DNA from: Marchantia polymorpha subsp. ruderalis
Lineage: Eukaryota > Streptophyta > Marchantiopsida > Marchantiales > Marchantiaceae
Direction of reading: 5' to 3'
DNA length: 64,000 nucleotides
Assembly (NCBI GenBank): GCA_037833965.1
Contig: AP031356.1
Coordinates: forward strand, 4,424,501 to 4,488,500
A program made the position numbers and the translations under genes. This document shows, piece by piece, positions 3,101 through 54,360 of the stretch (its first letter is position 1; each line of letters begins with the position of its first letter). The notes under the pieces are model-generated. The model had not been told where the DNA came from, searched no databases, and worked only from the letters and a program-made list of their open reading frames with translations.

Positions 3101-6100
3101 TCCTACCATCTCTAAAGACGGGCGAGCTGGGACTTCAATGTCGTCATCTGGATTAGGAGGAGGTATGGGTTCAGCAGGTATTCCGGTCAATGTTCCGGTG
3201 CCCACCTTACCTGTCATTTCACTCACAGAAGAGCAGCAGGTTGCACTTGGGAAGGCAGCTCTCGTCCGTATTTTGGAGGGGCACAAAACAATATCTGCCG
3301 CTGGAGGAAATGGCTTGAGGATTGCCTTACTTGCTCGACTGGTGGCACAGGCAAGTTGTTTTCTGCAGGTTGATCTGTTGGCGTACAAGTTGAATTCTCA
3401 GTTTAGGCAGTCTTTACGGCCAGAAGGGTTCACACTAGTTAGTCACACATTTCTGCAATTTTCGTACAGATGTAAGCCCAAAATCACAGAAAAGTTTGAA
3501 TATCACATGCTTGAGCTTCATCTATGTCATATTCATAATGGTGCTGGATCTGAGATAGGCGTTGTGCAGGGTTTCTCTGAAGAGATCTGAATATTTGCCT
3601 TATTATAATTTTCTGCTTACCCTCATGTACTGTTTCTACAGTCATGTGAAGATGAACAAGCTGTCGAAGTTGTGCGTAAACATATACTTGCTGATTATCA
3701 AAATCATAAGGTGAGCTTTTGTCATCGGATGTAGGGCCACAGTTTCCTTATTGACGCACACAAAGTCCTAATATATTAGTGGATAAACTGCTGTTTATGA
3801 TCAGTTGAAGATGAAGGCGACCTGACCCCTGGCATATGGTTGCTTTGATTGTGACTTTGTTAGGGTCACGAATTAGCTCTACATGTACTCTATCAATTGT
3901 ACGCTGAACAGGCATCAGAAGAGGGAACTTCATCTGCTTCTTCTTCTCCAATATCTTTGGCATATGATAAACTTCTCCTGTCTTTGGTGGGTTGATTTTT
4001 GTACGACCATAACAAGTCTCACAAATCTATTTGAATCAATTTGGCATTTGGTTGTTTCCTGTCTTCCGGTATTCCACGTTTTTACCATAGTTGTGTTCCA
4101 ACAATCGACACAAAAAGTTCCAAAAATTCAAGCCGGAAATTCTTAGTTACAAGACTGCAAGGCCAGGTTGTAGACAAGTAATCGTTTTGCTTCACTAATG
4201 AAGCAACATATTTTACGGAATCACCGACTACCGTCAAGTGAGGTGATGCTTTGGAATGAATCTCATAATCGCGCTTATTTTGTGTGCAGGCTCAAGGGTT
4301 GAGGGACACTTTGCCTCCTGCAGACAAAGCCCTAAGCAGATTGTTGGCTGAGGTGCCAGTGTTACCTATGACAGCCTTGGACCTACTTCAGGGATTATGT
4401 AATCCCGCTCTTCCAACTAAAGATGGCAAGGAACCACTAGGTGGTGACCGGATAACACAAGGTCTCAGTGCCATTTGGAGTCTAATTCTGCAGAGGCCAC
4501 CTGCACGAGAAACTTGCCTTAAATTGGCTTTGCAGGTATGGATCTTGTGTTTGACACAAAAAACTTATCACGTTAAAAGGTATAGAAGGAACATACATGT
4601 TTCAATTTTTCAGAGTATTCAGTTACCAGATCCACGTCCTACCAATTGAAGTTTCATACAAGGGAAAGGTTTAGAAGCAAACGGCTACCTCTAATGCTGG
4701 TGCGTTGACATGCAGTGTGCTGTCCACGAAGTCGATGACATTCGAGCGAAGGCTATCCGTCTGGTATATGTTTCTTTCTGCAACTTTTGCTCATCACTTT
4801 TAGCATATCTTTTACCAAGTTTGATCAGGGTGGTCGCATTTTTTGTTCGGCCTGTTCCTTGCGACGGTTATCGTGAACACTTTGACTTCCCATTATTGCA
4901 GGTGGCGAATAAATTGTACCCCCTTAGCTATGTTGCAGACAGCATCGAAGGATTTGCTCTAGACATGCTCCAATCTGTGGTCGAGTCAAGGCAAACACCT
5001 GTAGATGGAGTTGCAAAAGATCCCATGGATGTGGATGAAGGGGAACCTTCGTTACCACAAGTGAAAAAGGTACTACCAGCAGCTCTTTTGCTTTATATGA
5101 CTTAGTTCTGCTGTAGTCAGCATAGAGTGTGGGCGCTTTTTTTTTTCAAACTTAAGTTTTTGTTTACTGGTTAGTGATCGTAGACCTCATTTTTCTTCGT
5201 AGATTTTATCTAGAATTTGGATAGTCAGATGATTAGTTGTTTTCCCTCTGGGGGTCTTATGCAGGAGGAAGAAGAGCGTGAGCAATCCTCTAATGGTGAC
5301 CAGAGACTGGTTCAGGGTTCAGATGAAGTATCAATAAATGAATCCGGTGGTCGAAATGTACACCAAAGCAGTAGTGGCACTGTTTCCATGACTGAGGCCC
5401 AACGATGCATGTCACTCTTTTTTGCACTCTGCACTAAGGTATGGATGTAGCAGCAGAGCGTGGTTAGTTAGATTGGAACCCCCTGTGACAAGAACACAGG
5501 GTATGCTGGAAGCGGGGCTAGCAAAACTCCTGAGTCCCAAATCCCCGGAAATGGCGGAGTTAGCTCCGTGTTCGTTGCCGAACATGAATGAGTGCAATGC
5601 CTTTGCACAGAAATGGACTTGTGCTTTTAATCGTGCGGGACGGTCGGGTTCTTCACCCCGGTCAGAACCACACGTGCAAGTTTCTCTGCATGTGGCTCGT
5701 CCATGATAACTTATTCAGGGTTTACGGGCCTTCGTCTAGAGAACAATTTGAAATGAGAATACATAAACAATTGCTGGTCATAGAAAGGGAAACGCATAAA
5801 TTGCGTGAAAAGTTAAATTGGTTAAAACCCGCAGGCCGTCACCGAACCGTACGTGATGGTTTCCCATCATAAGGCTCCTACTGGAACATACCGGGGGTGA
5901 AAACGAGGCCCTGCAATTATCCCCTGATGGGGATAGAAGGGGGGTTACATTAACTCCTAGTTGGGATGGGGTGTGCTTATGCTAGAAAGGTTGGTTGCTG
6001 CAAGTTCAATAGAGTTTTATGCATATCTTTAGCTGAGCTTCATCATCCTCAGGCTCCATCTTGACAAATTCTTAACATATCTTTTTGCAGAAACACTCAC

Positions 6101-9100
6101 TACTACGCCAACTCTTTTCAGTGTACGGTCATGTATCTAAAACTGTCAAACAGGTGTGGCGGAGTTCTAAACGTTTTCTTTCTGTTCATATACTTTTGTC
6201 CAGACTTCCCATATCTTTATTCTAGTTACTTTTAAAATCGGTGCCAATTACACCATTCTAGAATTAGAGTAACTTGGTTTTTTTGCACATGAACTAAATG
6301 CAGTGGTCTCTCTTTGATGGCTGTTTTACTGTCCGTCAGTAAGCAGTTGTACATAGAGAATTGTGAAGTAGAGTTTTGATTTCATTCTTATGATATAACG
6401 TGCATGCTCGTTGCCCATTTAGGACTTTCTTTCCGCACTTTTGGAGGCTTTTTCTTCTCTCCTTTGTATCTTGTTACTACTTCTCGGTAGATTTGTTAGG
6501 ATTCTAGGAGACACGCAAGCGTTACCAACCCAATTAAAGACCTTTTGTCAACTTGAAACCGCTCTATAGTTTGATATATTTATTTGCACCATATGCAGGC
6601 AGTACATCGCCATATACCTATTCTTTTTCGGACTATTGGCTCGTCATCAGCAGAGCTGCTGCAAATTATATCTGACCCACCCGCCGGAAGTGAACATCTC
6701 CTTCTACAAGTGGGTACAGAAGCCGGTCAGGCTACTGCTTAGACTTAGGATGTTGGTTTCCAGCGTACAATATGTCTCTTCATCTATCACGACATTTCTT
6801 TGTTTACAGATGAGTTATCATCCTGGGATCATCTATAGGAGGACTTATAATACTTCATGAATTCTGCACAGGTTCTTCACAGTCTTACTGAGGGTAGCAC
6901 TCCTTCTCAGGAGCTCATCGCCACTGTTAAAAAGTTATACGAGACTAAGCTGCAGGTACGTATTGACCAACTTCCTGTCAAAAGCTGGGACTACAGACAA
7001 TTCATAGATAATCTGAAATGACCCTACATCCTCGTAACAAGAAAATTCTAAACGCTTGGTATTTGTTTATTTTTCTTTATGAAGGCACTTCATCCAATGT
7101 TTAACAGTAGACAAAATTCGGCAGACACAAGAGAGTTGATGATATAGATGCAGTTTTCAAGAATAGGACAGTTCTAATTTGTCGTATCATCTTATCTTCT
7201 TGAATGTTCAATGTGCAGGATGCAGTGTTTCTAATCCCTGTATTGTCCTCCTTAACGAAAGATGAGGTATTTCACATGCAGCTGAAGTGTATTTTTTCTG
7301 GATGGCTTTTCTTTCAGCATGGGATTATTGCGTTCGCTAATTAAGCTACTCTCAGCCTGCAATCGTTTTTAAATGTATACTTCGTCAAGCATTCCAATAA
7401 GGAATACATACAAACGCCTAGTTATCTGAAGATGTGAAAGAATGTACGAATCTTACATACGTGATGCTTGAATGTGGTGCTTCTTTCGTCTAAGATGACT
7501 CTTTTCGATCGTTTTGGCAGGTGTTGCCAATTTTCCCTCGCTTGGTAGATTTACCTCCTGAAAAATTTCAGACAGCACTGGCCCGCATCCTACAGGTACT
7601 CCTACATGCTCATCCATGAAAGGTGGAAGGAATACTTCGTCCATGGTATCGTACTGTGCTATACTACTGAGAAGATACCATTTTAGTATGCATTTTTCTC
7701 TGTTCCTCCAAGGTTTATTTTTTTTTTGTGATTAAAGTCATGCCTCCTTCTGGTACAGGGATCTGCGCACACTGGCCCAGCTTTGACACCTACAGAAGTG
7801 CTCATTGCCCTTCATGGGATCGATCCGAACAAGGACTCTGTTCCGTTGAAAAAGGTAGGTTCGTCTAATTGTATGAACCCTACTCAACAGTGAGTGTCAT
7901 AAGTTGAAGTACATGGATTCTGCTCAGGAGATGTCTGTTACTGCACTCACCCTGTCTGAGTGACGCTAGTAGTACTAGACTGGGATGTCAAGCATAAACA
8001 ATTAACGGTGTTTTCAAACCATCTCATAATATTAATTTGGATTCATCGTTGTTCTGTCATAAGCTTTCATTTTCCGGGATTAACTAACTTTTTCCAGAAG
8101 GCTGCACACGCAACATCTTTTCAAGTTCCATGCATTCGTAGCTATATAAAATGTGGACCAAACTTTACTAGGAAGTATTGCCGGACTTAACAAAAGAATT
8201 TTTAACTTTGTGGATCTAAGTTACGAATAGTCATTATACAGGGAAGCTCTCAGTACTTTTGGTAAGAAGGAAGCATTCACTGGTGTAACTTTTTGTTTAT
8301 AGCTGTGCAAATCCATAGGACACTGATTCCTGTTATTTAATACATGGGTTCCTGTTGTCTGGTGAAGGTGATGGATGCTTGTTCGGCTTGTTTACAACAA
8401 CGTACAGTTTTCACCCATCAAGTTTTGGCCAAAGTTTTGAATCAACTGGTAAATTCTTTTTTTTAGTGTCTTTTGTATAGCCTTACACGATTGTTAGATG
8501 TTCTCTTGGATGAAACCTTTCAGAGTTTGACTCTTGCCAAGCGTAGGTGTCCTGTTTTTCAGCACGCCACTGTCGGAAAATGTAACTTAATAATCTAGCG
8601 GAATGAGAATTCCTGTTGTCCAAATAACCCGGTCATACGTTCTAATAGCTGTGTACGCATGGAATGAAATAGGTCGAGCAAACTCCTCTTCCTCTACTAT
8701 TCATGAGGACTGTTATTCAAGCCGTTGGAGCCTTTCCCTCGCTGGTAAGTTGATGAATTCGGTCGATTTTTTGTCGATTGGCTACTATCCGGTCAGTGCA
8801 CAAGGTCGATGGATCCCGACTGAGAGCACATGTCTCCATATGAGCCTTTTTTCTAAAGCGTCTGAGCTACGTGAGTGTGGACGCTTATGCGTACCTTAAA
8901 CTCACTGATTGTTTTGTTTCCTTTTTACACAGGTCAGCTTTGTGATGGAGATCTTGTCTCGTCTTGTTAACAAACAGGTAAAGCTCAACTTGGGTAGGCT
9001 GATCAGCTTGACCCTTTTTTGTTTGGCAGGAAGTTGCATCCCTTTATTTGGCGTTTGATCAATATTGTGTGGCTTGCTCTATGCAGATTTGGAAGTTCCC

Positions 9101-23600: not shown

Positions 23601-24232
23601 AAGAAAAAAATGAGAGCCAAGGGAATGAAGAGGCGGGGGAAGAGATAAATAAGCAGCAGGAGGTGGAGGCGAAAAGGGAATCTCATGAGATTCGAAGCAT
23701 AATGCTCCGAGGGGAAGAAAAATCGCCGTCTGGGAATGGCCTTATCGGCAAGCTACAGCAGGCGCGGATCGGGCATGCGATGGACGGATGGAAACATGAG
23801 TAGGGTAAAGAGGAGTTGACTGCAGTCGTGGACCGGAGGTCCGGTGAGATGAGCTTGCGCGGAGGTGAGCCAACCAAAAGCAACCGCGCGAACGTACAGT
23901 ACAGTCGAAGAAGATGCGCGGCCTGGCTGCGGCGCCGACAGTCGCGGCGCGGTGAGGTGAGGTGAGGGCAGGGGAGGGCTAGGCTAGGCTCCGTGGGGTG
24001 AGCGAGAAGGCCCGAAATAAGCCTAGCGATTGCGGTGGTCGATATCGGGGGCCGACGACGCCGCAAATAGAAAAGAAAGCGGAGCATTTAGCATGATGCC
24101 GCCGGGGCCGAACGCGTAGAGTGAATTCCAGAGAGATAGCTAGGGCTACTTCCGTGGCTAAAGCAGAGCTGGCGTGCTTGCTCTGCTGGCAGCGCAGAAC
24201 AAAAGAAAAGAAAAGAGCAGCAGCGTCGACGG

Positions 24233-24415
24233 ACGGAAGGAAGGAAGGAAGGAAAGAAGGAAGCACGCAAGCGAGGGAGGGAGGGAGGGAGGGAGCGAGC
24301 GATAAAGAAGGAAGGAAGGAAGGAAGGAAGGAAGGACGGACGGACGGACGGACGGGAAAGGGAGGACGAAGGAAGGAAGGAAGGAAGGAAGGAAGGAAGG
24401 AGAGAAGGAAAGACA
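24233..24415 (+). repeat. (GGAA)n / (GGAC)n microsatellite cluster upstream of the PP2C gene
   Basis: GGAA repeats at 24233-24260, GGGA repeats at 24275-24295, GGAA at 24309-24334, GGAC at 24334-24354, and GGAA again at 24367-24400. The cluster lies 1.25-1.45 kb before the PP2C start codon and is purine-rich on the sense strand. Confidence 0.9.
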
Positions 24416-24486
24416 AAGAGGCGACAGAGAGAGGCGCCATCGGTCGCACAGCGGAAAAGGCCTTTGGCCTTCAGACTCGGCCTTTG

Positions 24487-24506
24487 CTTGGCTTGGCTTG
24501 GCTTGG
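24487..24506 (+). repeat. (CTTGG)4 microsatellite
   Basis: Four copies of CTTGG about 1.2 kb upstream of the PP2C start. A similar run stands upstream of the transporter gene at 47841-47871. Confidence 0.9.
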
Positions 24507-24623
24507 CACACTCACTCCCAACTCACTCTCTCACTCACTCACGCACTCACACTCGCAACTCGCGCACTCGTTGCTTCATTTGTTTTTGAGAGGCCAGAGC
24601 GTCTGACGGTCCGGACCATTTTG

Positions 24624-24802
24624 CATACACACACACACACAACAACAACAACAGAGAGAACGAGAGAGGAGAGACAGCGAGGTAAGAGAGGGAGAGGGAG
24701 AGGGAGAGAAGACGACGAGTAGATAGAGAGGGAGGGAGAGAGAGAGAGAGTGCAGAAGAAAAAGCACGATTGGTAGAGAGGGATAGAGAGGGAGGGAGAG
24801 GG

Positions 24803-24853
<51 letters not shown>

Positions 24854-25110
24854 TCGAGCGTTTTTGGTGATCGAGGAGGAAGGTTGGCAAGAGGGTGTTG
24901 GATTGGTTGGGTGCAGATTGGAGGGGCGGGACTCGGACGAGGAGAAAGAGAGGAGGTGTAGGCGAGAGGGAAGAGGAGGAGGAGGAGGAGGAGGAGGATT
25001 TTTTTTTTCGTTGAGAGGGAGAGAGGGAGAGAGGGAGAGATAGAGAGAGGAGAGGAGAGGAGAGAAGAAGAGAAGAGAAGAGAAGAGAGGAGAGGAGAGG
25101 AGAGGAGGGC
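24624..25110 (+). promoter_or_regulatory. GA-rich putative promoter/leader of the PP2C gene
   Basis: An ACACAC run and an AACAACAACAACAG run (24627-24652) are followed by nearly 450 bases that are almost purely purine on the sense strand. These include an uninterrupted (GA)n at 24806-24850 and GGA repeats at 24974-25000. The tract ends about 560 bases before the start codon. Plant BBR/BPC proteins bind GA repeats of this kind, so a promoter or 5' leader role is plausible. I could not locate a transcription start. Confidence 0.6.
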
Positions 25111-25672
25111 GGAAGCGCTTGTTCATCCGGCAGGGGCAGAGTAGGAGGCGGTTCGATCCGGTGGAAATTTCTTGATTGTGAGAGAGGACGGCGGTGGAGG
25201 GGTCGTGCATCATCCGCAGCACGGGAAGGGAGAGGTTTTCGAGAGTGCGGGACTCGCTCATCACGCGTCGGACGAGAGAAGTCGCGAGGGCAGCAGACGT
25301 CAAACGGCAGGGAAAAGGATACGGAGACGGAAGAGTGCCGGTTGTTCCCTTTTTTGGTAAGAAAGAGTTGGACTGGCTGGCTGCACGACCTTGGCTGGAC
25401 GGGCGCTGCCGAGAATCGGAGCATGTGTAGGGTAAGGCAAAAAATATCTGCGAGAGAGATACCCAAGGAAGGTCAGGAATTAGTCGAGTGAGGAGAAGTT
25501 TGAGGAGGTTGGTCAATCAGGTGCGTTCTAGGAGTGGTGGGGCGAGGATTAGGAGTTGTTTCCAGGTTTTGAAATCTGCAGCAAAACGCAGAAGAAATTG
25601 AGTCCAAGGACGGGTGGACTCGTCAGATACTCAGGGTAATGCTAAAGACGTTCATGCCTATTAGAGGCAACA

Positions 25673-28600
25673 ATGGCAGCAGGTACAGATATTACACACC
25701 CTGTGAGCGCTTTAGAAGCAGCTTACAAGCCCATTCCTCTGGAACCTCTCCCTGTATGTACCATCAAGGAGAACGGCGTTGCGGTGGATAATAATGATCC
25801 CTCGATTGTGGAGAAAAATAGGAAAGATCGAGAAACTCTTCAAGCATCAAGCAGGCCTCCAAGGCCAAACCCGAACGCTGCTCCACCAACGGCGTCATTC
25901 GTCCGGAGAAGCGTCAGCACGGCTCGTCTCACCTCACTTTCGTCTGCATCTGATTTGGACACGGTACGCTTTAATCACCGGAACTCCAAGTGTGCGGTGC
26001 TTTCGTTGGGCAGTTTTTTTGTTCCGCCGACGACAATCGTTCCCTCCCCATCGTGTTTACCTCACTTGCCAGATTGTAACAGAAAGGTGGATGTGTCGAA
26101 CACACGACCTTTCTGGTTTTTTATTTTCAAAAAAAAAATCCCCGGCCAAACCCCTTATCACTCCATTTGCGCCTCTCAAGGACATTACATTACTTGTCTT
26201 TGATGTGGCGCTAAGCCCCAAGGTTGTGAGTTTTGTAGTCATGAATCTTTACGGTGGAACGTTTGGCCTCATCGTCGTCATTTGTTGTCCTCGGAGTCTT
26301 CAGAGTTCCATGGATCTGGATGCGCTCGTGTGGGGTTCAGCTTGATACTTCTCTCTATTTTTAGTCCTCACCTTTGAAGGCTAAGAGGTTTGTGTTCGAA
26401 GTCCCTACCCTGAAAGCTAGAAGAATCCTGTTGCGGTTGAATCCGAATTGAATAGATTCGGGATTCTGACTGCACGAATTCTGGATAGGGCTGCCCAACA
26501 TGTCGAGCTGCCCTCAACAAGGCCCTTCTAAGCATGATATCATTGACACTGTGGAAGACGCGAGTTTTTCGTAGGAGATCGGTGACAGTGAAGTCCAAGC
26601 AATGAAACACCTTTTCTTCTCTGTATGTGAAGCTTCTCCGGAGTTTCACGTGCAAAGAAGAAAACGTTCGAGGAGCTAGGTCACACTCAAGTACCGTTCA
26701 AAGTATTAGAAGGTCAAACCACTGCTTTGGATGACTTTTCGATGTTTGTTTTGGTTCGATGTGTGATCCAGTGCCCATTTTTCAGGTTTCTGTAATTTGG
26801 CACGAGATCTCTGCCGTTGCGTGCCGTCCCCCCCCTGAACGGAAACATTCATCTGGAATACACCTTGATGTAGTGCCTGTCCCCTGCTGCCCGGCTATTT
26901 CAATCCTCCCACAGGCTAGAGTGCACCTGCAGTCAGTGTGCACTTTGAGAACACTGCGCCTATTGGCAACAAGTAGGATGACCGAGAACGTAATTCTCTT
27001 TGTCAGTGGTGACACAGGAGTTTGAAGAATTGAGATTAAGTTGTTGGTGTGCAAAAAGTTTGCATGCAAGTGGTATTGTAAACAAACAAGCGAGTCCTCC
27101 AGTTTCTAATTGATATCGTAAGCCAACGTAGCTTGAATCCGCTAAGAGTGTGTGTACGTGGAACGTGGTTGTTAGAGATATAGTGCTTAGCTAGGAACGA
27201 ACGACAGAAAATTTTTTTGGCCACACTTCACGGACGTGTCATGTTTAGATCTACTGAGGTTCTTTACTCATTTGATTGTCAGAGCAGTCTGCGTGGAGTG
27301 TACAGCCAATCGTGTGCGATATAATTCAATACTCTGTCCCATTGTCGGTGTTCGCGCGTGGAATCTAAAGCTGCTTGTGACCGGTAGGGAACCCAGTCTC
27401 AGTTTGTAAGACTTCTTTCTGACCATTTGATCTTATCTCGATTTTCCAGGACGGAATAGAATCAAGCGAACGACCTATTTTTGAGCGTCATCCATTAGAG
27501 CGTATGGATAGAGCTATAGTGGAGTACACGCCCATTTTACGGTCAGGAGGATGGATGGATCAAGGAAATCGGCCAGCCATGGAAGACACGCATTTACGTA
27601 TCGACAATTTGGTCACTTGGCATGCCGAATCTTCCCAAACAAGTGAGGCCTCCCTCAGTTCAAATGAAGGCCCTGGGGCTTTTTATGGGGTAAGGATGCC
27701 TCTCACTGTGCCATGACATGGCCTAAGTCACGTTCGTGCTTTTGTGTTGTCACAGGCTTACTGCAGATCGCAGGCCTTCTGAAGTCTTTGTCAATCGAAA
27801 TTCAGAGTAGTGTTCCATCTCCGCCACGGAAAGCTTTTCATTCTTTTTTCATTGCCGATTTTGTGGACTACTGATGTATGATAAGGAATGTGTGCGTTCG
27901 TTCCTGAGAGTCTTTTTACGACAGTCAGGCGAAGGTGTACTTACGTTATTTTTACGTTGGGCAGGTTTTTGATGGCCACGGAGGGAAAGAGGCGGCAGAT
28001 TATGTCAGAGAAAATCTACTCATCAACTTCTTGGAGGATAGTTCGTATCCAAATTCTCTCAGTGAAGCTGTGAAAAACGCATTTTACAAGACGGACGTTG
28101 CCCTAAACAACGAATTCATTCGCCATCAGGAGTGGACCTGTGGTACAACTGCGCTCACAGCCATTATTTCCGGAAGGTAATGTCCAACCACTCTCTTTGT
28201 ATCTTATATTGTTTCATAGATGTCTAATATTAAACGTCGTCTTGCGTGTCAGTCGCTTTTAGCAGTGTCGGAGACGTAAGGCCTAGATTTGTTGTGACCT
28301 TCTTCGAAATTCCAATCTTTTTCAAAGAAGCATATAGGATAGCACGAACTGTGTATTGGTAGGTAGTGCTTTCAAGCAAGGCCACTCATATTCTCTCTCC
28401 ACATCGCTGTATCGACAAGGGCCTATATTTATGTTCCATAGTACTTGTTAGTTTAGCATTTGGTGCTGTGTTCTGAATCTCATTAGCCATCTTTGGAAGC
28501 GGAAATTAGAATGAAACTTGAAGGAATGCTGAGAAAGGTTTTTGTTACGCGCACTTCCAGGAATCTGCTCGTAGCAAATGCTGGCGATTGTCGTGCCGTT

Positions 28601-33161: not shown

Positions 33162-34653
33162 GAGATTTGCTTGATGGGACTCCTCGGGAAAGTAATTTGC
33201 TTCATGGGACCCCTCAGGTTTAGTTTTCCCCTATGGGACCTGCCTATGCGACGAGGAGCTCGTACCGGAAAGTGATCCGAGCTCAAGTCTCGCGAACTAT
33301 GTACCGTCGGCCATAGTTCTTGTAACTATGATTGATAGTTACACTGCGGGGATTACAATCAGAGATCAATATCTGATTATAATTTCTGGTGGATTATCAC
33401 GGGGACAAAGATCAATTTTGCCCGAAGTGCAATTTGTATGCTTCAATCCTCCCAATCGCACTGATTTGCGAATTTCTCTGTTGACTCCGGCCTGCACCCT
33501 CCTTCCGTAACCCTGCCTATGCGACGAGGAGCTCTTACCGGAAAGTGATCCGAGCTCAAGTCTCGCGGTCACCCATTTGTGGCAAACAAATAAACTCTGG
33601 ATGAGTATTTCTTTGCTCATCAATACCTGATTATAATTTCTGATGGTTTATCACGGGGAAAAGATCGACTTTGCCCGAAGTGCAATTTGTATGCTTCAAT
33701 CCTCCCAATCGCACCGATTTGCAAATTTCTCTGTTGATTCCGGCCTGCACCCTCCTTCCGTAACCCTGCCTATGCGACGAGGAGCTCGTACCGGAAAGTG
33801 ATCCGAGCTCAAGTCTCGCGGTCACACATTTGTGACAAACAAATAAACTCCGGATGAGTATTTCTTTGCTCATCAATCCCTGATTATAATTTCTGGTGGA
33901 TTATCACTGGGAAAAGATCAATTTTTCCTGAAGTGCAATTTGTATGCTTCAATCCTTCCAATCGCACCGATTTGCGAATTTCTCTGTTGCCTCCCACCTG
34001 CATCCTCCTTCCGTAACCCTGCCTATGCGACGAGGAGCTCCTACCGGAAAGTGATCCGAGCTCAAGTCTCGCGGTCACCCATTTGTGGCAAACAAATAAA
34101 CTCCGGATGAGTATTTCTTTGCTCATCCAGGGGAGTGGCGGGATACACAATGACAAAAACAAAACAAGTCTCGCGGTCACCCATTTGTGGCAAACAAATA
34201 AACTCCAGATGAGTATTTCTTTGCTCATCCAGGGGAGTGGCGGGATACAGAATGACAAAAACAAAACAAGTGAATGTGATGATGCCTCCCGCTTGCACAC
34301 TCCTTTCGTAACCTTGCCTATGAGACGAGGAGCTCGTACCGGAAAGTGGTCCGAGCTCAAATCTCGCGGTCACCCATTTGTGGCAAACAAATAAACTCCG
34401 GATGAGTATTTCTTTGCTTATCGGGGGAGTGGCGGGATACAGAATGACAAAAACAAAACAAGTGAATGTGATGGAGTGCGAAGTCCACTCTGTCCGTGGG
34501 TGTGGTTGATTTGTTGCACTCTCTCTAAAACTCAAGTCGTCAATAGAACATGGGTGACGGTACATCGTGCATAGGATCCCATCGGGTAAAACGAAACCTG
34601 AAGGGTCCATCAAGCAAATTACTTTCAGCAGGGGTCCATCAAGCAAATATCTC
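33162..34653. mobile_element. Non-autonomous long-TIR DNA transposon, family member A (Mutator-like?)
   Basis: The left end (33162-33240) and right end (34573-34653) are inverted repeats of about 80 bases, each holding three copies of a TTGATGGGACC-like box. They share GAAAGTAATTTGCTT and TCAGGTTT/GTTTT segments. The interior has no transposase, only a tandem array of ~253-base units. No matching target duplication is evident at this copy, whereas the two other family members have 10-base near-duplications, which suggests the Mutator-like group. Minus-strand open frames inside simply repeat with the array. Confidence 0.75.
33244..34400. repeat. ~253-bp tandem array inside element A, with a nested ~102-bp repeat
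   Basis: The text CTATGCGACGAGGAGCTC starts at 33244, 33517, 33770 and 34023, and in altered form at 34318, giving spacings of 273, 253, 253 and 295. Each unit continues with GTGATCCGAGCTC and a TGGCAAACAAATAAACTC segment. In the fourth unit a sub-segment of about 102 bases (GCGGTCACCC at 34071 and 34173) is itself duplicated, which accounts for the longer spacing. Confidence 0.9.
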
Positions 34654-37999: not shown

Positions 38000-40640
38000 T
38001 AACCAAAAAAATTTGAAACATAAATTTTATGTTTTGAGTTAATGTAGATTTTGAAAAATGAAAGATATAATTCATATCAACTATATTAAAATAATTATCA
38101 TTGTGAATACTAAACAATATTGGCAATATCTAAACATGATTATTTCAAAAAGTAGATGGCAAAACTTTTTAATGAATGATACTCAAAATGCAAAACAGTT
38201 GAAGATTATGAGATCAATTTGTGAGCACAATTTAATATTTGACGTACAAAAAGAGAAATTTGACCAAAAAAATTAACAAGTGAATATTTGAGTAATTTGA
38301 ATAATCAATAGATGAAATTTTTTGAAAAGAATTCATAACGTAAAAGCAAGATAAAATAACAATAATTCTACTAAATTTTTTTTTCAAGCAGTTTGTAATG
38401 AAGATCAAGTTGATATCAATGATTAGTAAATTTTGAAAAAAGCGGCATGAAGGAATTGTTTAACAAATTTTGCTCTAAAACTTTGCTAAAGCATTTCAAG
38501 CAAAAGTAAAACACTTTTCTATTCATCTATTGAATTTTAAATCAAAAATTTTAAATACGATATAAATTTTTTCACAACATAAACTCTATTTTTTGTTAAT
38601 GTAGAAAATAAATCTTAAGATTTTAATTTTTTGAAAATTTTTATCTTTTCTTTGACTTGTTTTTTGTCTTTCAAATAATAAAGACAACTCTTGTATTTGA
38701 TAATTTTATTATCTTCTTTTTGAATCTTTGTGTTTGCAATGTCATTTTACCATACTTGAAATAATCCATGTGTAGAATGATGAAATAATATTCTTTTATA
38801 TTTTGTGCAAAAACCAAGGTCTATGTGAAATGAAATCAGACTGTTTAATCACAAAGATTACATTCAATGGAATCACATAAAAATATTTATACAAAAAACT
38901 TTGAGGATAATATTCCAGGATTTCAAACTTTAACTAAATTTCAAAACTTTGTCTACCTAAAAGATGAAACTAATTTTTTGTATAATAGCAAGCTTATAAA
39001 TTTATATGTTGTAATTTTAATAATTCTATTCATTTAAAACTCCAAAGATAATTACAAAAAAATTAACCTTGACTTTTGTGTGATTTGTTTTATATTATTA
39101 CTCATATTTGTTTCTATGTATTGATAAATTTTCCTTGAAAGTATACTAAAATAAATTTCTAATATAAAGCATCAAATGTATTAATTTAATATGATAAAGC
39201 TGTAATAAGACTATTTTCATAGAATTATGTTATCAATGATGAAATCAAAAGGATTTTATAATATATTTTTGGTATCATACTATTTGATTATATGTTAAAA
39301 TGATTAATTTTCACATGCTATTTTTTTTCTGGAAAAATAACATTCCAATTAATATAATATTAGAATATACATAATTTTTTCTAAATATTATTTCAATATA
39401 TTGAAATAAATAAACTTTGATTATTTTTTCATTAATATATCTTTCAAAAAAATAATCCTATTTTTGAAAATATTGAGTATAATTAGCTTTCACAAGAACA
39501 AATTTCAATATTTGTAATAATCATGATTGATAAATTTTGCATTTTATTGTGATTGCAAATCATATTTTGTAAATAATCATATTTATTTAATCATCATTTA
39601 CAAGATAATTTAAAATTTAAATCAGAATGAAAGCAAATTGGCTCAATTACTGATAACTATACTTTTATTGTTTGAACCAAGAATACACTTGGCCTAAAAA
39701 ATGTTGAATTTGAAGTAATTTAGAATTTTTGTCAGTCAAATGTTTTTACAATTTCAAGTGTATGATTAATCACCAACCATTTATAATGTGAAATCAAAGA
39801 TCAAGGTTTGAAATTGATTGGCAAGATGAATCAGTAAATATCTCATTTTGTACATTCAAAGTTGAAGAATAAATATGACTTCTTGAAAATCTTTCATTTT
39901 ATTATTTTCTTAAGAATTTCAATAAAAAAGTTAAGATTCACTGAAATTATTTTTTAATGATAAGCTTCGATTACCTAATGATGTTTAAACTTTTATATGC
40001 ATAATTCTAATAACAGTAATGGAGTTAATTCATGACTACAAACTTTGATGAAAATTTTGCTATTCTATGTAAGCTTTAAAAAATACTTAAGAATATTTTG
40101 ACTATTTTTGAATGATATATTGAAATTATTTTACTATTATATATACATTGCTTACAAATTATAGCATAAAATTATTTTTAATATCAACAAAAAAACTATA
40201 ATTAAAAATAAAATAAAATATGGTATTACAAATAAGGTTTGAAATACGTTAACGTTCCAATCCTCGAACATTCCATAATTTCTATGTTAGAACTAAATAT
40301 TTTGTAATCCATGTGAATTGATGAAGAAAAAAAAAGAAAAAAACTCTTCACAACAAGATATAAATTTTTTTGGTAAATCTTTCTTTTAAAGATTTTTTAG
40401 AGGAACAATCACTGTTCAGAAAAAAATAAAATTAGACTTTTTATAGATGAACATGATTACATAATCCTAAGGATTTGCAATGTAATTCAATCCTTAACAA
40501 AATCTTTTAATCAATCTCATATGTCGGACATGTATTCGAATAAATATAGATGTCTTTATTTGCTAAAACGAAACCTTTTCTAAAATTACTTTTGCTTTTT
40601 GTCGTATCGAAGAAGTGGTCAAATCCCATTTTGATGTCCA
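38000..40640. other. Extremely AT-rich block
   Basis: About 2.6 kb of sequence that is mostly A and T, with no open frame above about 72 codons and many TTTTGAAAA-like motifs. It may be decayed transposon DNA that has lost C and G by methyl-cytosine deamination. No element ends are visible. Confidence 0.5.
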
Positions 40641-49311: not shown

Positions 49312-50150
49312 GGCGAAACTCTCTGTGAGCTGAGACGGAAGGTGGACTTCGTAACTGGACAGCACTAGCGGTCTGAATTCCTCATCACAGCTACAAGACC
49401 AAAAAATACCAAAGTAAATAAAGAAGTTGAAACTGGCCACAACCTCAAAGCAGGTCCTCTGGCAGTGTCTTTCCTGGGCTGGACCTGACACTGAGTCGTG
49501 CAGCTCTGCAGGTCACCTTCATTTGGTAGAACCCAACAGTTCAAACCTGAAAACCCCTTCACCGTACGAGCGACCAGAAGATATTCACAGCTAATCGAAT
49601 CACCTTTTGCTCTTTTTTTCCTCGAATTTTTTCAGCTGCCTCTGATGCACAGTCAGTACATTACGTGTTATGGTCAAAGCAATTGACTTCTGTAGCCTTT
49701 TATACCCCTACTCCGCTAGGCTCTCTCTCTCTCTCCTTTTCCTTTATTGAAAGGGAGAAAACAATGGACTCGAACTTTCCATTTGTGTCACTTCAACTTG
49801 TCGTTTTTTGGATTCCCTTTACTGCATCAGTGCAACTTACTGCGTGCTTTTCAGGTACGCACCACAAATCCTTCGATTTTTTGGCCACTCGTATTGATAG
49901 TGTATGGGCCGAGGCAAAAATAGTTGAACATGCTTTCCCATCCCCATTTCTTAAGTCCCATTCACATGATTCACAATCATTGATTTTGATATCTTCAAAC
50001 TCCCAAAAAAATCTATTTTACAATACCAAAAAAGCAAGATGATAGCTATGAAGAGACAATTATGCTTAGTGGATCCAAGAAATGGATGTAATGGAAAATA
50101 CAAGAAGATGGGAAGATCTAATGAAGTTAAAGAAGTGACAAATTTAATAA
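49312..50150. other. Intergenic region, no gene recognised
   Basis: No family resemblance in any frame. A CTCTCT run lies at 49722-49735. Confidence 0.35.
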
Positions 50151-50160
50151 CAAATTATAG

Positions 50161-50756
50161 GAGATATTAACTTGATGGTACCCCATTGGAAACTAAACTG
50201 TTTAATGGGATACTTTAAGTTTTGTTTTACCTAATGGTACCCCACCGAAGGCACACATCATGCATTTTATTGTATCAACACACAGTGCAGGTAGTGGAAC
50301 TGTGACAGCGAGACTGAACTCTTCCATCATTTAATCTCCCAAATTTACACTGAGTGCAATCGGACCCCGACACTTCTTTGTCTGAAACTTCCCCGTAGCA
50401 TCAAAATTTGTAAAATTACCTGACAATGGAATTCACAAGTACTCCACTTCACTCCTTGTGAATTTACTTCACAGATTACACATGTCCGCTGTTGCTCACC
50501 GAGTCGAATTTCCGACAGCTCAAAACTGAATACCTATGTGCCCTTGTGATAATGTTTGTCACAGTTCATCATTCTATAATTTGCGGTTGCAAAGAATCAC
50601 TAAAGTTTGCGTATGATGCAAGCTTTAGTGTACAAGAACATCTTGTAGAAGTTCTCGATGGTTTGACTCCGATGGTATCCCATCGGATAAAATGAAACTA
50701 GATGGGTTCCATCAAGCAGTTTAGGTTCCGATAGAGTCCCATCAAGTAAATAACTC
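50161..50756. mobile_element. Non-autonomous long-TIR DNA transposon, family member B
   Basis: The ends 50161-50240 and 50680-50756 are imperfect inverted repeats with three TTGATGGGAC-like boxes each (for example CTTGATGGTACC at the left and GTCCCATCAAG at the right). Both termini begin GAG on the inward strand. Flanking 10-base sequences CAAATTATAG (50151-50160) and CAAGTTATAA (50757-50766) agree at 8 of 10 positions and look like an aged target duplication. There is no coding capacity. Its interior is unrelated to that of member A. Confidence 0.8.
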
Positions 50757-50800
50757 CAAGTTATAACATATATTTTAAAATATCTTCATGCGATATATAC

Positions 50801-50842
50801 ACCACAACATCTACAATATTTAAATATTGTATATGTTGTGGT
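50801..50842. repeat. 42-bp near-perfect palindrome
   Basis: Arms of 21 bases (starting ACCACAACAT and ending ATGTTGTGGT) meet without a loop and differ at one pair only. It lies 45 bases beyond the end of transposon member B. Confidence 0.9.
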
Positions 50843-53800
50843 CTAGCATACAACTTAAATATTTTGTGCCTTACGATACATCGTGACTGCTCTACTATGT
50901 AGAAAGCTAGCATTGAAAATTTATAGAGCAATTAAAACACTTTAACAAACATAAGTTACACAACCATCCAAAAAACAATAACAAAAAATTATGCAGTTTT
51001 GTGTAGTGCACTTACAAAAAAATGTCTTAAATACATTTCAAGTATAGTTAAAAAAATATATCATAGAACAAAGAGATGATAAATATATCATTAGTATTCA
51101 ATACCTCAAGATTAATGATGTTGTCATCTTCAGTTTTAGTATTCAATCCTCCAATTCAAAATAGTTGTATTATCAGAATGTAATCAAAAAAATTATTCAG
51201 ATTTTTTTCAATAAAAAATAAGTCAAAGGAACAAGAAAAAAAAATCAATATAAAATATGAAAGATTTAACCACAATTGATAAAAATACAAGATTAGTAGA
51301 ATAAAAAAAATTTATCCAAAATTATCTTGATTCACTACTTTGTTGTATTTTAAAGAGTGACAAATTTAAACAAGTTTGAATCAAATGATGTTACAGATGA
51401 AAATATCATGATTCATTATTTTTTTTTATTTATAATCATAATATTTGAATTTTTCTGATAATAAATTGAAAAAATTATTTTTTGAAAAATATTATAAAAT
51501 GAAAATTGCACCATACTTAATATCATACAAAATAAATCTATGAATCTGTTGTCGACCAATTTTGATTAAAAAATTAAAATTTTATAATTTATAATTTTTG
51601 TACACAAACTCAAACATTCAAACAACTCACATCCAACCAGAAATATTTGTACTTTTATTTTATTTTATATTATTAGGTCAACATATCAATTCAAAAGCTT
51701 TGCTTCTTTATTTATAATTTTTTCTTCATAAAATAATATTATTGCAAAATATTTTGTTGAAGTTAAATTGAATGTAATATTTTCACTGTAAAATTTTGAA
51801 ATTAAAAAATATTATAAATTGAAAATATTAAATAAAAATATTTTTTTAGGAGAAAGTAATGATTTACAAGTTTTTATTTGTAATTCAATAATATTGAATC
51901 AATCCTAAAAAAATTTGCAGAAAAAATAGAAGATACTATACTTAATTCAAAACAGATTTATGTCATTAATTTTGAACTCAAATGAAGATAATTCATATTT
52001 TTTTGCAATCATCAATTTAAATAATTCTGAATTTATATGACACCAAATTTTATAAGAAATAAAATTATTTTTAATTTTGATCTATAGTCAATCAAAACCT
52101 TGCTGCATGCTAACAAAGAATAAATCTAAATCAGGTTTCAAACAATGGTCAAAATCACACTTTTAAATGCATTTGCAATAAATTCTACAATGAACTAATA
52201 AAAAATTATCATTATAAGAAATTCCTACTGTTATAATCTGAATTAATTATAGATTATGAAATTTTCGAATTATAATTTAAATTGGTTTAAAGTGTAAAAT
52301 TGCATGAATGTGAATGCGTAGTATATTTTTAAATTTTTTTTAATAACATATGACATTATAATTCAGGTTTCATGTTATAAATGATAATATATAACAAATT
52401 AAAAGCAATAAAAAATAAATACCACATGCAAAATGAAATCTCAAATTTTTTCAGATTTATTCAGATCTTTGTTGCAAATATTGATTTTCAATTAATTTCA
52501 TACAAAGTTATTAATTATATTATACATGTTTTATATAAAAATTTTCAATTTCATTTTAACTGATGCTCACAACTCAAAGTTAAACATTATAAAGATATAT
52601 TTTCATGTCACATTTGCAAAGACAACATTTTTCATTGGGAAATTGTTCTTGTGAATTTAGTTCTTGTCCTTTTAAGTTAAAAAGTTCATTCTATATCATA
52701 AGTATTGAATTGAAACTTGATAACATTTAGATTTTAAAATACATGCAAAAGCATCATGGATTCTCCGTTTTGATATTGATATTTTTTAATCATAATAGAG
52801 TAAGAAGTACAATTTACAACATAAAGCAAACCATATTCTTATCGAAAAGCCAATAACTTTGGTTATATGCGACAAACCCATGCTCACTCTAAGAAAGTTT
52901 AGATTTTTAGAAATCTAACCATCAATCGTCATAGATTTGATTCATGTTGTGGTTGCTACCTTACTTATTTGTCAATTTCCTCCCTGCTAAATTTCACAAA
53001 CTTATTCTTGAATCATAGGAGTGAAGGTTTAAATGATACAAAAATCTACACAAGAATTTTTAAAAATTTACTCAGCAGTAATTGAGATGTTAGTCAAACT
53101 AGAATATAGTCAATTTTAATTTGGATAATTTTTCAAGCATTGTATTCAAAGTAAACTGGCAATGCATTAATGAGGTTCGGTTTTAAGTAAAGGATTAAAT
53201 TTAGAAATATATCAACAAACTGCCGATAAATATTCTGAGGGAGTGTCAGCAGTAACAACCGGCTTTGCAACTCTCTTCCCGGTCACAATTTAGATATTGT
53301 GATTTTTAAGTAGAGAAATTTCTGATTATCGTATTCATTTCACGATTCTATATGTAAATGAAAGAAAAAACTTAAATAGAAAAAAAAGGCGAGCAAGTTG
53401 TCCAAATTGATAAAAATACAATAAATATTAAATAGTGGAAATCGATTAATCTAGTAAAATCGTAGGTAAACATGAATAGGAGTATCAAATAGATTGGGGA
53501 TAGACTAAAAGAACGTTCAATTTCCTCAATTTTACTCATATTTTTATAATTGGAGCTAAACATTTTTTGATTTTGAAACTCGTGAATTGATGCCATAAGA
53601 TTTAGGTTATTTCACAACCTCATTGATTTCAATGTACTAAGTGTTAGATTTACTGACATAATATGCACGGATAAAATACTAGCCATAAGATATAACAAGC
53701 CAGAAAAGCTGGTGTGGTACAAGGGAAAGCGAAACTTGTGTAGACTGATATTCAATATGGACCGAAATAAAAAAATTTAATTGTTAAAAACGAAAAAAAG

Positions 53801-53900
53801 TGAATGGAATGATCAATTTAGAGGAAAAGCCAGGGCCTGTTAAACTGTTCTGTTTCTCTTTGTTTTTACCTGCAAGAAACCACGAGATTGCATTGCCTTC
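50843..53900. other. Extremely AT-rich block
   Basis: About 3 kb of A/T-dominated sequence, like 38.0-40.6 kb, with no frame longer than about 75 codons. No element ends or genes are legible. Confidence 0.5.
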
Positions 53901-53968
53901 GAAGGGACTCAGTACGAGGACTTATAGTAGTGCAGAGCAAAAGGCAAAACAAAAATGACCATCGAAGA

Positions 53969-54360
53969 GAGGAAATTACTTGATCGTACCTCGGGGAAAT
54001 TCAAATCGCTTGATGGGACCAAACAGGTTTCATTTTACCCCATAGAATCCATCAACGGTCTTGCAGCCACACCGTAAGTACGGTTAAGAGTCATGGTGCC
54101 CGTCGTTTTTTTAGACATGGCTGCGAAGGAGTCGCCAAAATACTCTGGTCCGACAGAAGCGGACACTCCCCACTCTATAGAGCAAATTAGTAGGTTATAA
54201 GAACATGGATGATAGTGGCCGTGGACACTCCCCACTCTATAGAGCAAATCAATAGGTTATAAGAACATGGCTGACAGTGGCCCTGGAATGGGGTCTCATC
54301 GGTTAAATTGAAACCTGTTGGGTCCGTTGAGTTTCCAAGGTCCCATCAAGTATTTTCCTC
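53969..54360. mobile_element. Non-autonomous long-TIR DNA transposon, family member C
   Basis: Both termini start GAGGAAA on the inward strand and continue with the boxed inverted repeat (TTGATGGGACC, then AACAGGTTTCA). The flanking sequences CCATCGAAGA (53959-53968) and CCATCGAGGA (54361-54370) match at 9 of 10 positions, a clear target duplication. At 392 bases it is a MITE-sized member. Its interior holds a ~62-base tandem duplication (GGACACTCCCCACTCTATAG at 54161 and 54223). Confidence 0.88.

What the first reader, a model, noticed from the sequence alone, without database searches (positions are those of the whole stretch)
5665..5877. Two group II intron domain V hairpins in tandem inside a nuclear symplekin intron
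On the minus strand, 5877-5844 and 5698-5665 are both exactly 34 nt with an AGC triad, a GAAA loop, an AC bulge and a closing GGTTC, as in organelle group II introns. They start 179 nt apart, too close for two complete introns. This points either to a rearranged organelle insert or to two 3' ends fused before or after transfer. Because they lie antisense in the host intron, they should be inert in the pre-mRNA. Splicing of the flanking exons appears intact in the sequence.
Basis: partly seen in the sequence, partly recalled or inferred. Interest (0 to 1): 0.75.

Follow-up and report, generated by a model that had tools for sequence, protein, structure and literature searches.

The report
Patchwork mitochondrial DNA in nuclear intron
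A nuclear gene intron in this plant carries about 490 bases of patchwork organelle DNA, at least six short scraps joined end to end, two of which happen to hold the catalytic hairpin of an organelle intron; it is a relic of a known kind and very probably inert, although a mobile repeat later copied part of it elsewhere.

Summary
In detail: both minus-strand hairpins are group II domain V (RF00029, 46.1 and 45.8 bits, cut-off 40), 179 nt apart, antisense in a symplekin intron. They lie in a mosaic organelle insert (about 5456-5944) of at least six short pieces: 21 other nuclear loci each match one piece. Hairpin 2 is in piece 4; piece 5, between the hairpins, is mitochondrial rps10 coding sequence; hairpin 1 is in piece 6, the 3' end of an intron before an atp1-like exon. 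For three of five joins, at least two relatives agree with each other in continuing differently, so the order is not the normal organelle order. Similar scraps are common here: 33 matches cover one 3.2-kb mitochondrial-like stretch 1.9 times, with 40 of 194 candidates scored. Later a dispersed repeat captured part of the symplekin gene: 13 copies share one deletion junction and two still carry hairpin 1, so the insertion predates the capture and that half is no assembly artefact. Best reading: filler DNA from break repair, inert. An ordinary class with a readable history.

The parts
5264..5438 (+). symplekin exon upstream of the host intron
   Evidence: joins in frame with 6091-6153; peptide match to Symplekin
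5439..6090 (+). host intron, GTATGG...TTTTTGCAG
   Evidence: splicing itself not tested
5456..5517 (.). piece P1 of the insert, source unnamed
   Evidence: 3 nuclear relatives, L041, L044, L045; the L044 alignment runs on to 5527
5512..5565 (.). piece P2, source unnamed
   Evidence: 2 relatives, L042, L046
5564..5646 (.). piece P3, source unnamed; right limit 5646 rests on L036 alone, others stop at 5640 or 5627
   Evidence: 6 relatives, L031-L034, L036, L037
5647..5655 (.). about 9 unassigned bases, possible filler
   Evidence: no relative covers them
5656..5735 (-). piece P4, part of a group II intron holding hairpin 2; intron unnamed
   Evidence: 4 relatives, L035, L038, L040, L043
5665..5698 (-). 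group II domain V, hairpin 2
5735..5827 (+). piece P5, mitochondrial rps10 coding sequence, 31 codons
   Evidence: relatives L039, L050 cover 5734-5794
5826..5944 (-). piece P6, 3' end of a group II intron that precedes an atp1-like exon; domain VI cut before its 3' strand
   Evidence: 4 relatives, L030, L047, L048, L049
5844..5877 (-). group II domain V, hairpin 1
6091..6153 (+). symplekin exon downstream of the host intron
5801..6436 (+). stretch captured in dispersed repeat copies L017 and L018; in the 11 other copies it starts at 5947
6722..7008 (+). second captured stretch, joined directly to 6436 in 13 of 13 copies (to 7040 in L018)

Best explanation
A break in a symplekin intron, about 20 nt after its 5' splice site, was repaired by end joining that took up a chain of short mitochondrial DNA scraps as filler. 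At least six pieces of about 55-120 nt, from different organelle places and in more than one orientation, were joined with little or no homology. Two came from the 3' parts of two different group II introns, which is why two domain V hairpins lie 179 nt apart. The insert is antisense to the gene, lacks the rest of either intron, and is expected to leave with the host intron and do nothing. Later a dispersed repeat captured a stretch of symplekin reaching into the insert; at least 13 copies exist and two keep hairpin 1. Shown: hairpins, piece structure, rps10 identity of P5, intron-exon context of P6, captured copies and their order in time. Inferred: mitochondrial origin of P1-P4, the repair mechanism, a single insertion event, inertness.
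For: Both domain V matches. 21 of 21 fetched relatives match one piece each, with limits that coincide. P5 is rps10, E 4.2e-6 to a mitochondrial S10. P6 relative L030 runs on into an atp1-like exon and C8:7010680 crosses the same join at 84 percent. Relatives agree with each other and not with the window beyond P3 upstream, beyond P4 and beyond P6. Joins share 1-6 bases or carry about 9 unassigned bases. Other mosaics: L046, L035. Repeat copies L017 and L018 keep two of the joins. Review passages describe plant organelle inserts as multiple segments joined by microhomology of 1-7 bp (PMC7037861).
Against: No organelle genome of this species was available, so P1-P4 are not placed in one. The L044 alignment runs 10 nt past the P1/P2 limit, at 86 percent overall. 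L035 and L040 share both ends, which independent random scraps would not. The P4/P5 join shares only one base and P3/P4 none, so microhomology is not shown at each join. The left half is seen once. No empty site was seen.
Confidence: 0.85

Rival explanations
1. The pieces were already joined inside the mitochondrion, as a rearranged molecule, and entered the nucleus as one fragment.
For: Nothing here excludes a rare rearranged molecule. Piece order cannot be compared with the species' own mitochondrial genome.
Against: None of the 26 non-repeat places spans a join beyond the shared bases, apart from the weak 10-nt overrun of L044, although these regions are each found several times; relatives agree on other continuations at three joins.
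Confidence: 0.08
2. Several separate insertions or later rearrangements at one weak spot built the array step by step.
For: Pieces differ in identity to their relatives, 86 to 100 percent, which could reflect different ages.
Against: Pieces abut with 0-9 bases between them and no host intron sequence was recognised in between; the identity differences are confounded by the ages of the relatives.
Confidence: 0.05
3. Scraps of organelle RNA, copied into DNA, were used as filler, favouring stable structured pieces such as domain V.
For: Two domain V pieces in one array; L035 and L040 share both ends.
Against: L030 runs from intron across an exon into what looks like the next intron, as unspliced RNA or DNA would. 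P5 is coding sequence. Ends of 33 matches to a 3.2-kb stretch coincide no more than chance.
Confidence: 0.03
4. The joins are an assembly artefact.
For: The left half, P1-P4, is seen once and no reads could be examined.
Against: The P5/P6 and P6/host joins recur in copies on C5 and C8. The pieces differ from their nuclear relatives by up to 14 percent.
Confidence: 0.02

Closest known systems
Rearranged or mosaic nuclear integrants of organelle DNA (NUMTs, NUPTs) in plants
   Same: Short segments from different organelle regions, mixed orientation, joined end to end with little homology, inside an intron; described in review passages (PMC7037861; PMC3989485).
   Different: Two of the pieces carry a recognisable domain V, and part of the array was later carried away by a dispersed repeat. 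Kind is the same.
Mitochondrial intron sequence beside a nuclear lectin gene (Knoop and Brennicke 1991; only the title was seen, in the reference list of PMC7037861)
   Same: Organelle intron sequence at a nuclear plant gene.
   Different: Here inside an intron and as one part of a mosaic; the paper itself was not seen.
Organelle group II introns
   Same: The two hairpins meet the domain V and domain VI model.
   Different: No complete intron; both are fragments, so nothing here is a working group II intron.
Transposable elements that carry host gene fragments (Pack-type elements; recalled, from no call)
   Same: Dispersed copies with exon and intron parts of symplekin and a common left end in 10 of 13.
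   Different: The element was not classified; Pfam gave no transposase match for 5 reading frames of L020.

Membership tests
Mosaic NUMT | sequence of mitochondrial origin | tested here: inconclusive
   Met for P5 (rps10) and well supported for P6 (atp1-like exon); P1-P4 not placed because no organelle genome was available
Mosaic NUMT | several segments that are not neighbours in the organelle | tested here: met
   mutually agreeing relatives contradict three of five joins
Mosaic NUMT | embedded in nuclear sequence | tested here: met
   inside a symplekin intron on a 28-Mb contig; right edge repeated in L017 and L018
Mosaic NUMT | end-joining signature at the joins | tested here: inconclusive
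   shared bases: about 6 with one mismatch, 2, 0 with about 9 extra bases, 1, and 2 by inference; short overlaps also arise by chance
Group II intron | domain V | tested here: met
   both hairpins over the RF00029 cut-off
Group II intron | complete set of domains I-VI with 5' and 3' ends | tested here: not met
   each hairpin lies in a piece of 80 or 119 nt; P6 lacks the 3' strand of domain VI
Group II intron | self-splicing or splicing in the organelle | not testable with these tools
   sequence only
Gene-fragment-carrying transposon (the dispersed repeat) | transposase or defined ends with target-site duplication | tested here: inconclusive
   common left end in 10 of 13 loci, inverted repeats of about 240-280 nt in 7 of 13, no Pfam transposase match in 5 frames; target duplications not established

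The most novel reading that the evidence does not exclude
This plant's nuclear genome has repaired breaks with tiny mitochondrial scraps so often that the mitochondrial genome is covered several times over by mosaics of 50-200-nt pieces, and repeats then carry some of them further, so that fragments of organelle catalytic RNA become dispersed nuclear repeats.
Probability: 0.4. Interest if true: 0.45.

Novelty: new member of a known kind. Interest (0 to 1): 0.3.

Why it matters
It shows how a strong covariance-model hit in a nuclear genome can come from patchwork organelle filler with no intron behind it. It also gives an ordered chain of events at one locus: organelle insert, then capture of the gene fragment, then dispersal. 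If the density of such scraps holds genome-wide, this genome would be a rich record of end-joining junctions.

Tried and rejected
Recurrent break points in organelle DNA: suspected because L035 and L040 share both ends. Tested on the 55 rows; 22 rows were dropped (the self match, 6 local copies on C9, 1 neighbouring copy on C4, 1 weaker neighbouring copy on C2, 13 short secondary rows), leaving 33. Pairs of like ends within 0, 1, 2 and 5 nt: 0, 1, 1 and 5 observed, 0.31, 0.98, 1.69 and 3.76 expected. Not supported as a general rule; small sample, and L035/L040 stay unexplained.

A pre-insertion allele preserved in the 11 copies that start at 5947, almost at the edge of the insert: rejected, since their left flank shows no match to the window.

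Plastid origin: no plastid group II family of Rfam reached its cut-off in 5400-6000 (best 30.9 bits, cut-off 53). This does not by itself prove mitochondrial origin of P1-P4.

Outside collections: two patterns found nothing in viral contigs. One 16-base pattern from hairpin 2 found 50 stretches in bacterial and archaeal contigs, not pursued. The intron that gave P4 could not be named: L035 changes at the P4 edge into another repeated piece, and the search with L038 brought no place that reaches past hairpin 2. The control search with the COX1 family did not complete, so there is no independent NUMT count from a coding gene. Folding: a 76-nt stretch of L030 with domains V and VI was no more stable than shuffles (z -0.77, 35 of 200 as good), and the L018 slice that I gave was misplaced and says nothing.

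Papers: six searches. Listed were 3 of 3, 2 of 2, 20 of 24, 6 of 6, 15 of 142 and 6 of 6 papers. Going by titles and the starts of abstracts, none of those listed is about NUMTs in a liverwort nuclear genome or about domain V in a nuclear intron. Only passages of PMC7037861 (12 of 16 places) and PMC3989485 (6 of 6) were read.

Full report
Observation. RF00029 matches 5800-5879(-) at 46.1 bits and 5643-5700(-) at 45.8 bits against a gathering score of 40, and these are the only two gathering-level Rfam matches in the window. With a laxer limit, no plastid group II family reaches its cut-off in 5400-6000. Each 34-nt strand folds into a bulged hairpin with 0 of 200 shuffles as stable. The search of the 241-Mb, 9-contig genome lists 38 matches, 31 over the cut-off, from 57 scored of 18,856 first-look candidates, so the count is a lower bound. 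Among the 38 no pair other than this one is within 1 kb; the next closest are three on C3, about 1.3 and 1.6 kb apart.

Host gene. The exons at 5264-5438 and 6091-6153 join in frame. A 74-residue peptide from these and the following exon matches Symplekin (PDB 6v4x chain J, residues 759-827) at E 6e-6, though no Pfam family at E 0.01. The gene is on the plus strand, the hairpins on the minus strand.

Piece structure. The search of 5439-6090 against the own genome gave 40 places: the window itself, 13 repeat copies and 26 others. The 21 divide as P1 5456-5517 (3 loci), P2 5512-5565 (2), P3 5564-5646 (6), P4 5656-5735 (4), P5 from 5734/5735 (2), P6 5826-5944 (4), at 86 to 100 percent identity. 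One of the 21, L044, aligns 10 nt past the P1/P2 limit, weakly. The right limit of P5, 5827, comes from the rps10 reading frame, since its relatives end at 5769 and 5794. The right limit of P3, 5646, rests on L036 alone.

What the pieces are. P5 reads on the plus strand as 31 residues of mitochondrial ribosomal protein S10 (best match 6xyw chain Bi, named '40S ribosomal protein S10, mitochondrial', E 4.2e-6). Pfam gives Ribosomal_S10 at E 0.0011, just below its cut-off, and a weaker match to RVT_thumb at 0.0074. P6 is the 3' part of a group II intron. Its relative L030 continues past the window's limit into a reading frame with [21 protein letters not shown], then GTGCGAC, which looks like the 5' end of another group II intron; Pfam gives ATP-synt_ab at E 0.0038, below its cut-off. 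A second locus, C8:7010680-7010736, crosses the same place at 84 percent. The length of about 61 nt fits the interval between the introns known as atp1i989 and atp1i1050; these names are recalled and come from no call. By my reading of domain VI in L030, the window piece stops just before the bulged branch-point adenosine. P4 holds hairpin 2; its intron is not named. P1-P3 are not named; the P3 region has 16 places in the genome, the query's own and the window included. The two hairpins differ at about ten of 34 positions by eye, and each has its own set of relatives, so they come from different introns.

Not the normal organelle order. L031 agrees with L032, L033, L034 and L037 over 100-146 nt, up to 48 of them upstream of P3, where the window has P2. 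L038 and L043 agree over 138 nt at 98.6 percent, about 95 of them beyond the P4 limit, where the window has P5, and a third locus on C4 agrees. L030 and C8:7010680 agree beyond P6, where the window has P5. So three of five joins are contradicted by at least two relatives that agree with each other. For P1/P2 and P3/P4 the evidence is weaker.

Joins. P1/P2 share about six positions with one mismatch; P2/P3 share CT; P3/P4 have about nine unassigned bases; P4/P5 share one T; P5/P6 share AA by inference from the rps10 frame. This fits the description of plant organelle inserts as multiple segments joined by microhomology (1-7 bp) or blunt ends (PMC7037861, passages), but such short overlaps prove little alone.

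Setting. A 3.2-kb nuclear stretch on C3 (L103) with three domain V matches and reading frames that I recognise as cox2-like and nad4L-like (the names are by recall, no search was run) served as a stand-in for mitochondrial DNA. It matches 55 rows, with 40 of 194 candidates scored. After 22 rows were dropped (listed under Tried and rejected), 33 remain, median 159 nt, covering it 1.9 times; two of the 33 are neighbours on C7 and may be one insert. Other mosaics: L046 joins a P2-type piece to a piece matching L103 2523-2622 with a 2-nt overlap, and L035 joins another repeated piece to P4. A control with L103 reversed gave no match. Against this background two domain V pieces in one mosaic may be a coincidence that a scan picks out; I did not compute its probability.

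Later history. Window 5947-6436 joined to 6722-7008 occurs in 13 dispersed copies (L017-L029) at 94.3 to 97.6 percent; 13 of 13 have the 6436/6722 join, so one capture is the simple reading. L017 on C5 and L018 on C8 start at 5801 and carry the rest of P5, P6 and hairpin 1. The 11 others start at 5947 with unrelated sequence to the left. Hence the insertion came before the capture, and the P5/P6 and P6/host joins are seen on three chromosomes. L018 and L030 share a base in hairpin 1 at which the window differs, so the window probably changed there after the capture. The carrier shares 7.5 kb or more between L020 and L022 and has a common left end in 10 of 13 loci. Inverted repeats of about 240-280 nt were found in 7 of 13, and no transposase match in five frames of L020; it stays unclassified.

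Function. Nothing points to activity. Both hairpins lack the other intron domains, lie antisense to the gene, and the exons join in frame. Transcription and splicing were not tested.

Noticed in passing
L017-L029; window 5801-6436 and 6722-7008: A dispersed repeat of 7.5 kb or more has captured symplekin exons and introns, with one internal deletion common to 13 of 13 copies; it is unclassified.
   Followed up: partly
L103 (C3:6149800-6153000): A long mitochondrial-like stretch in the nucleus with three domain V matches and cox2-like and nad4L-like frames, matched by many short fragments elsewhere.
   Followed up: partly
L035 4920-4991 and L040 1460-1529: Two loci with unlike flanks carry the same stretch around hairpin 2 with nearly the same two ends.
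   Followed up: partly
window 38001-40000 and 50001-54000: Very AT-rich stretches, GC 0.21 and 0.27-0.28.
   Followed up: no
window 24001-26000: Strong purine bias on the plus strand (GC skew 0.35, AT skew 0.32), with GGAA, AG and GAGAG repeats at 24231-25109.
   Followed up: no
window 33365-34271: Tandem array of a 253-nt unit, 3.0 copies, 93 percent, beside a 102-nt unit, 2.0 copies, 98 percent.
   Followed up: no
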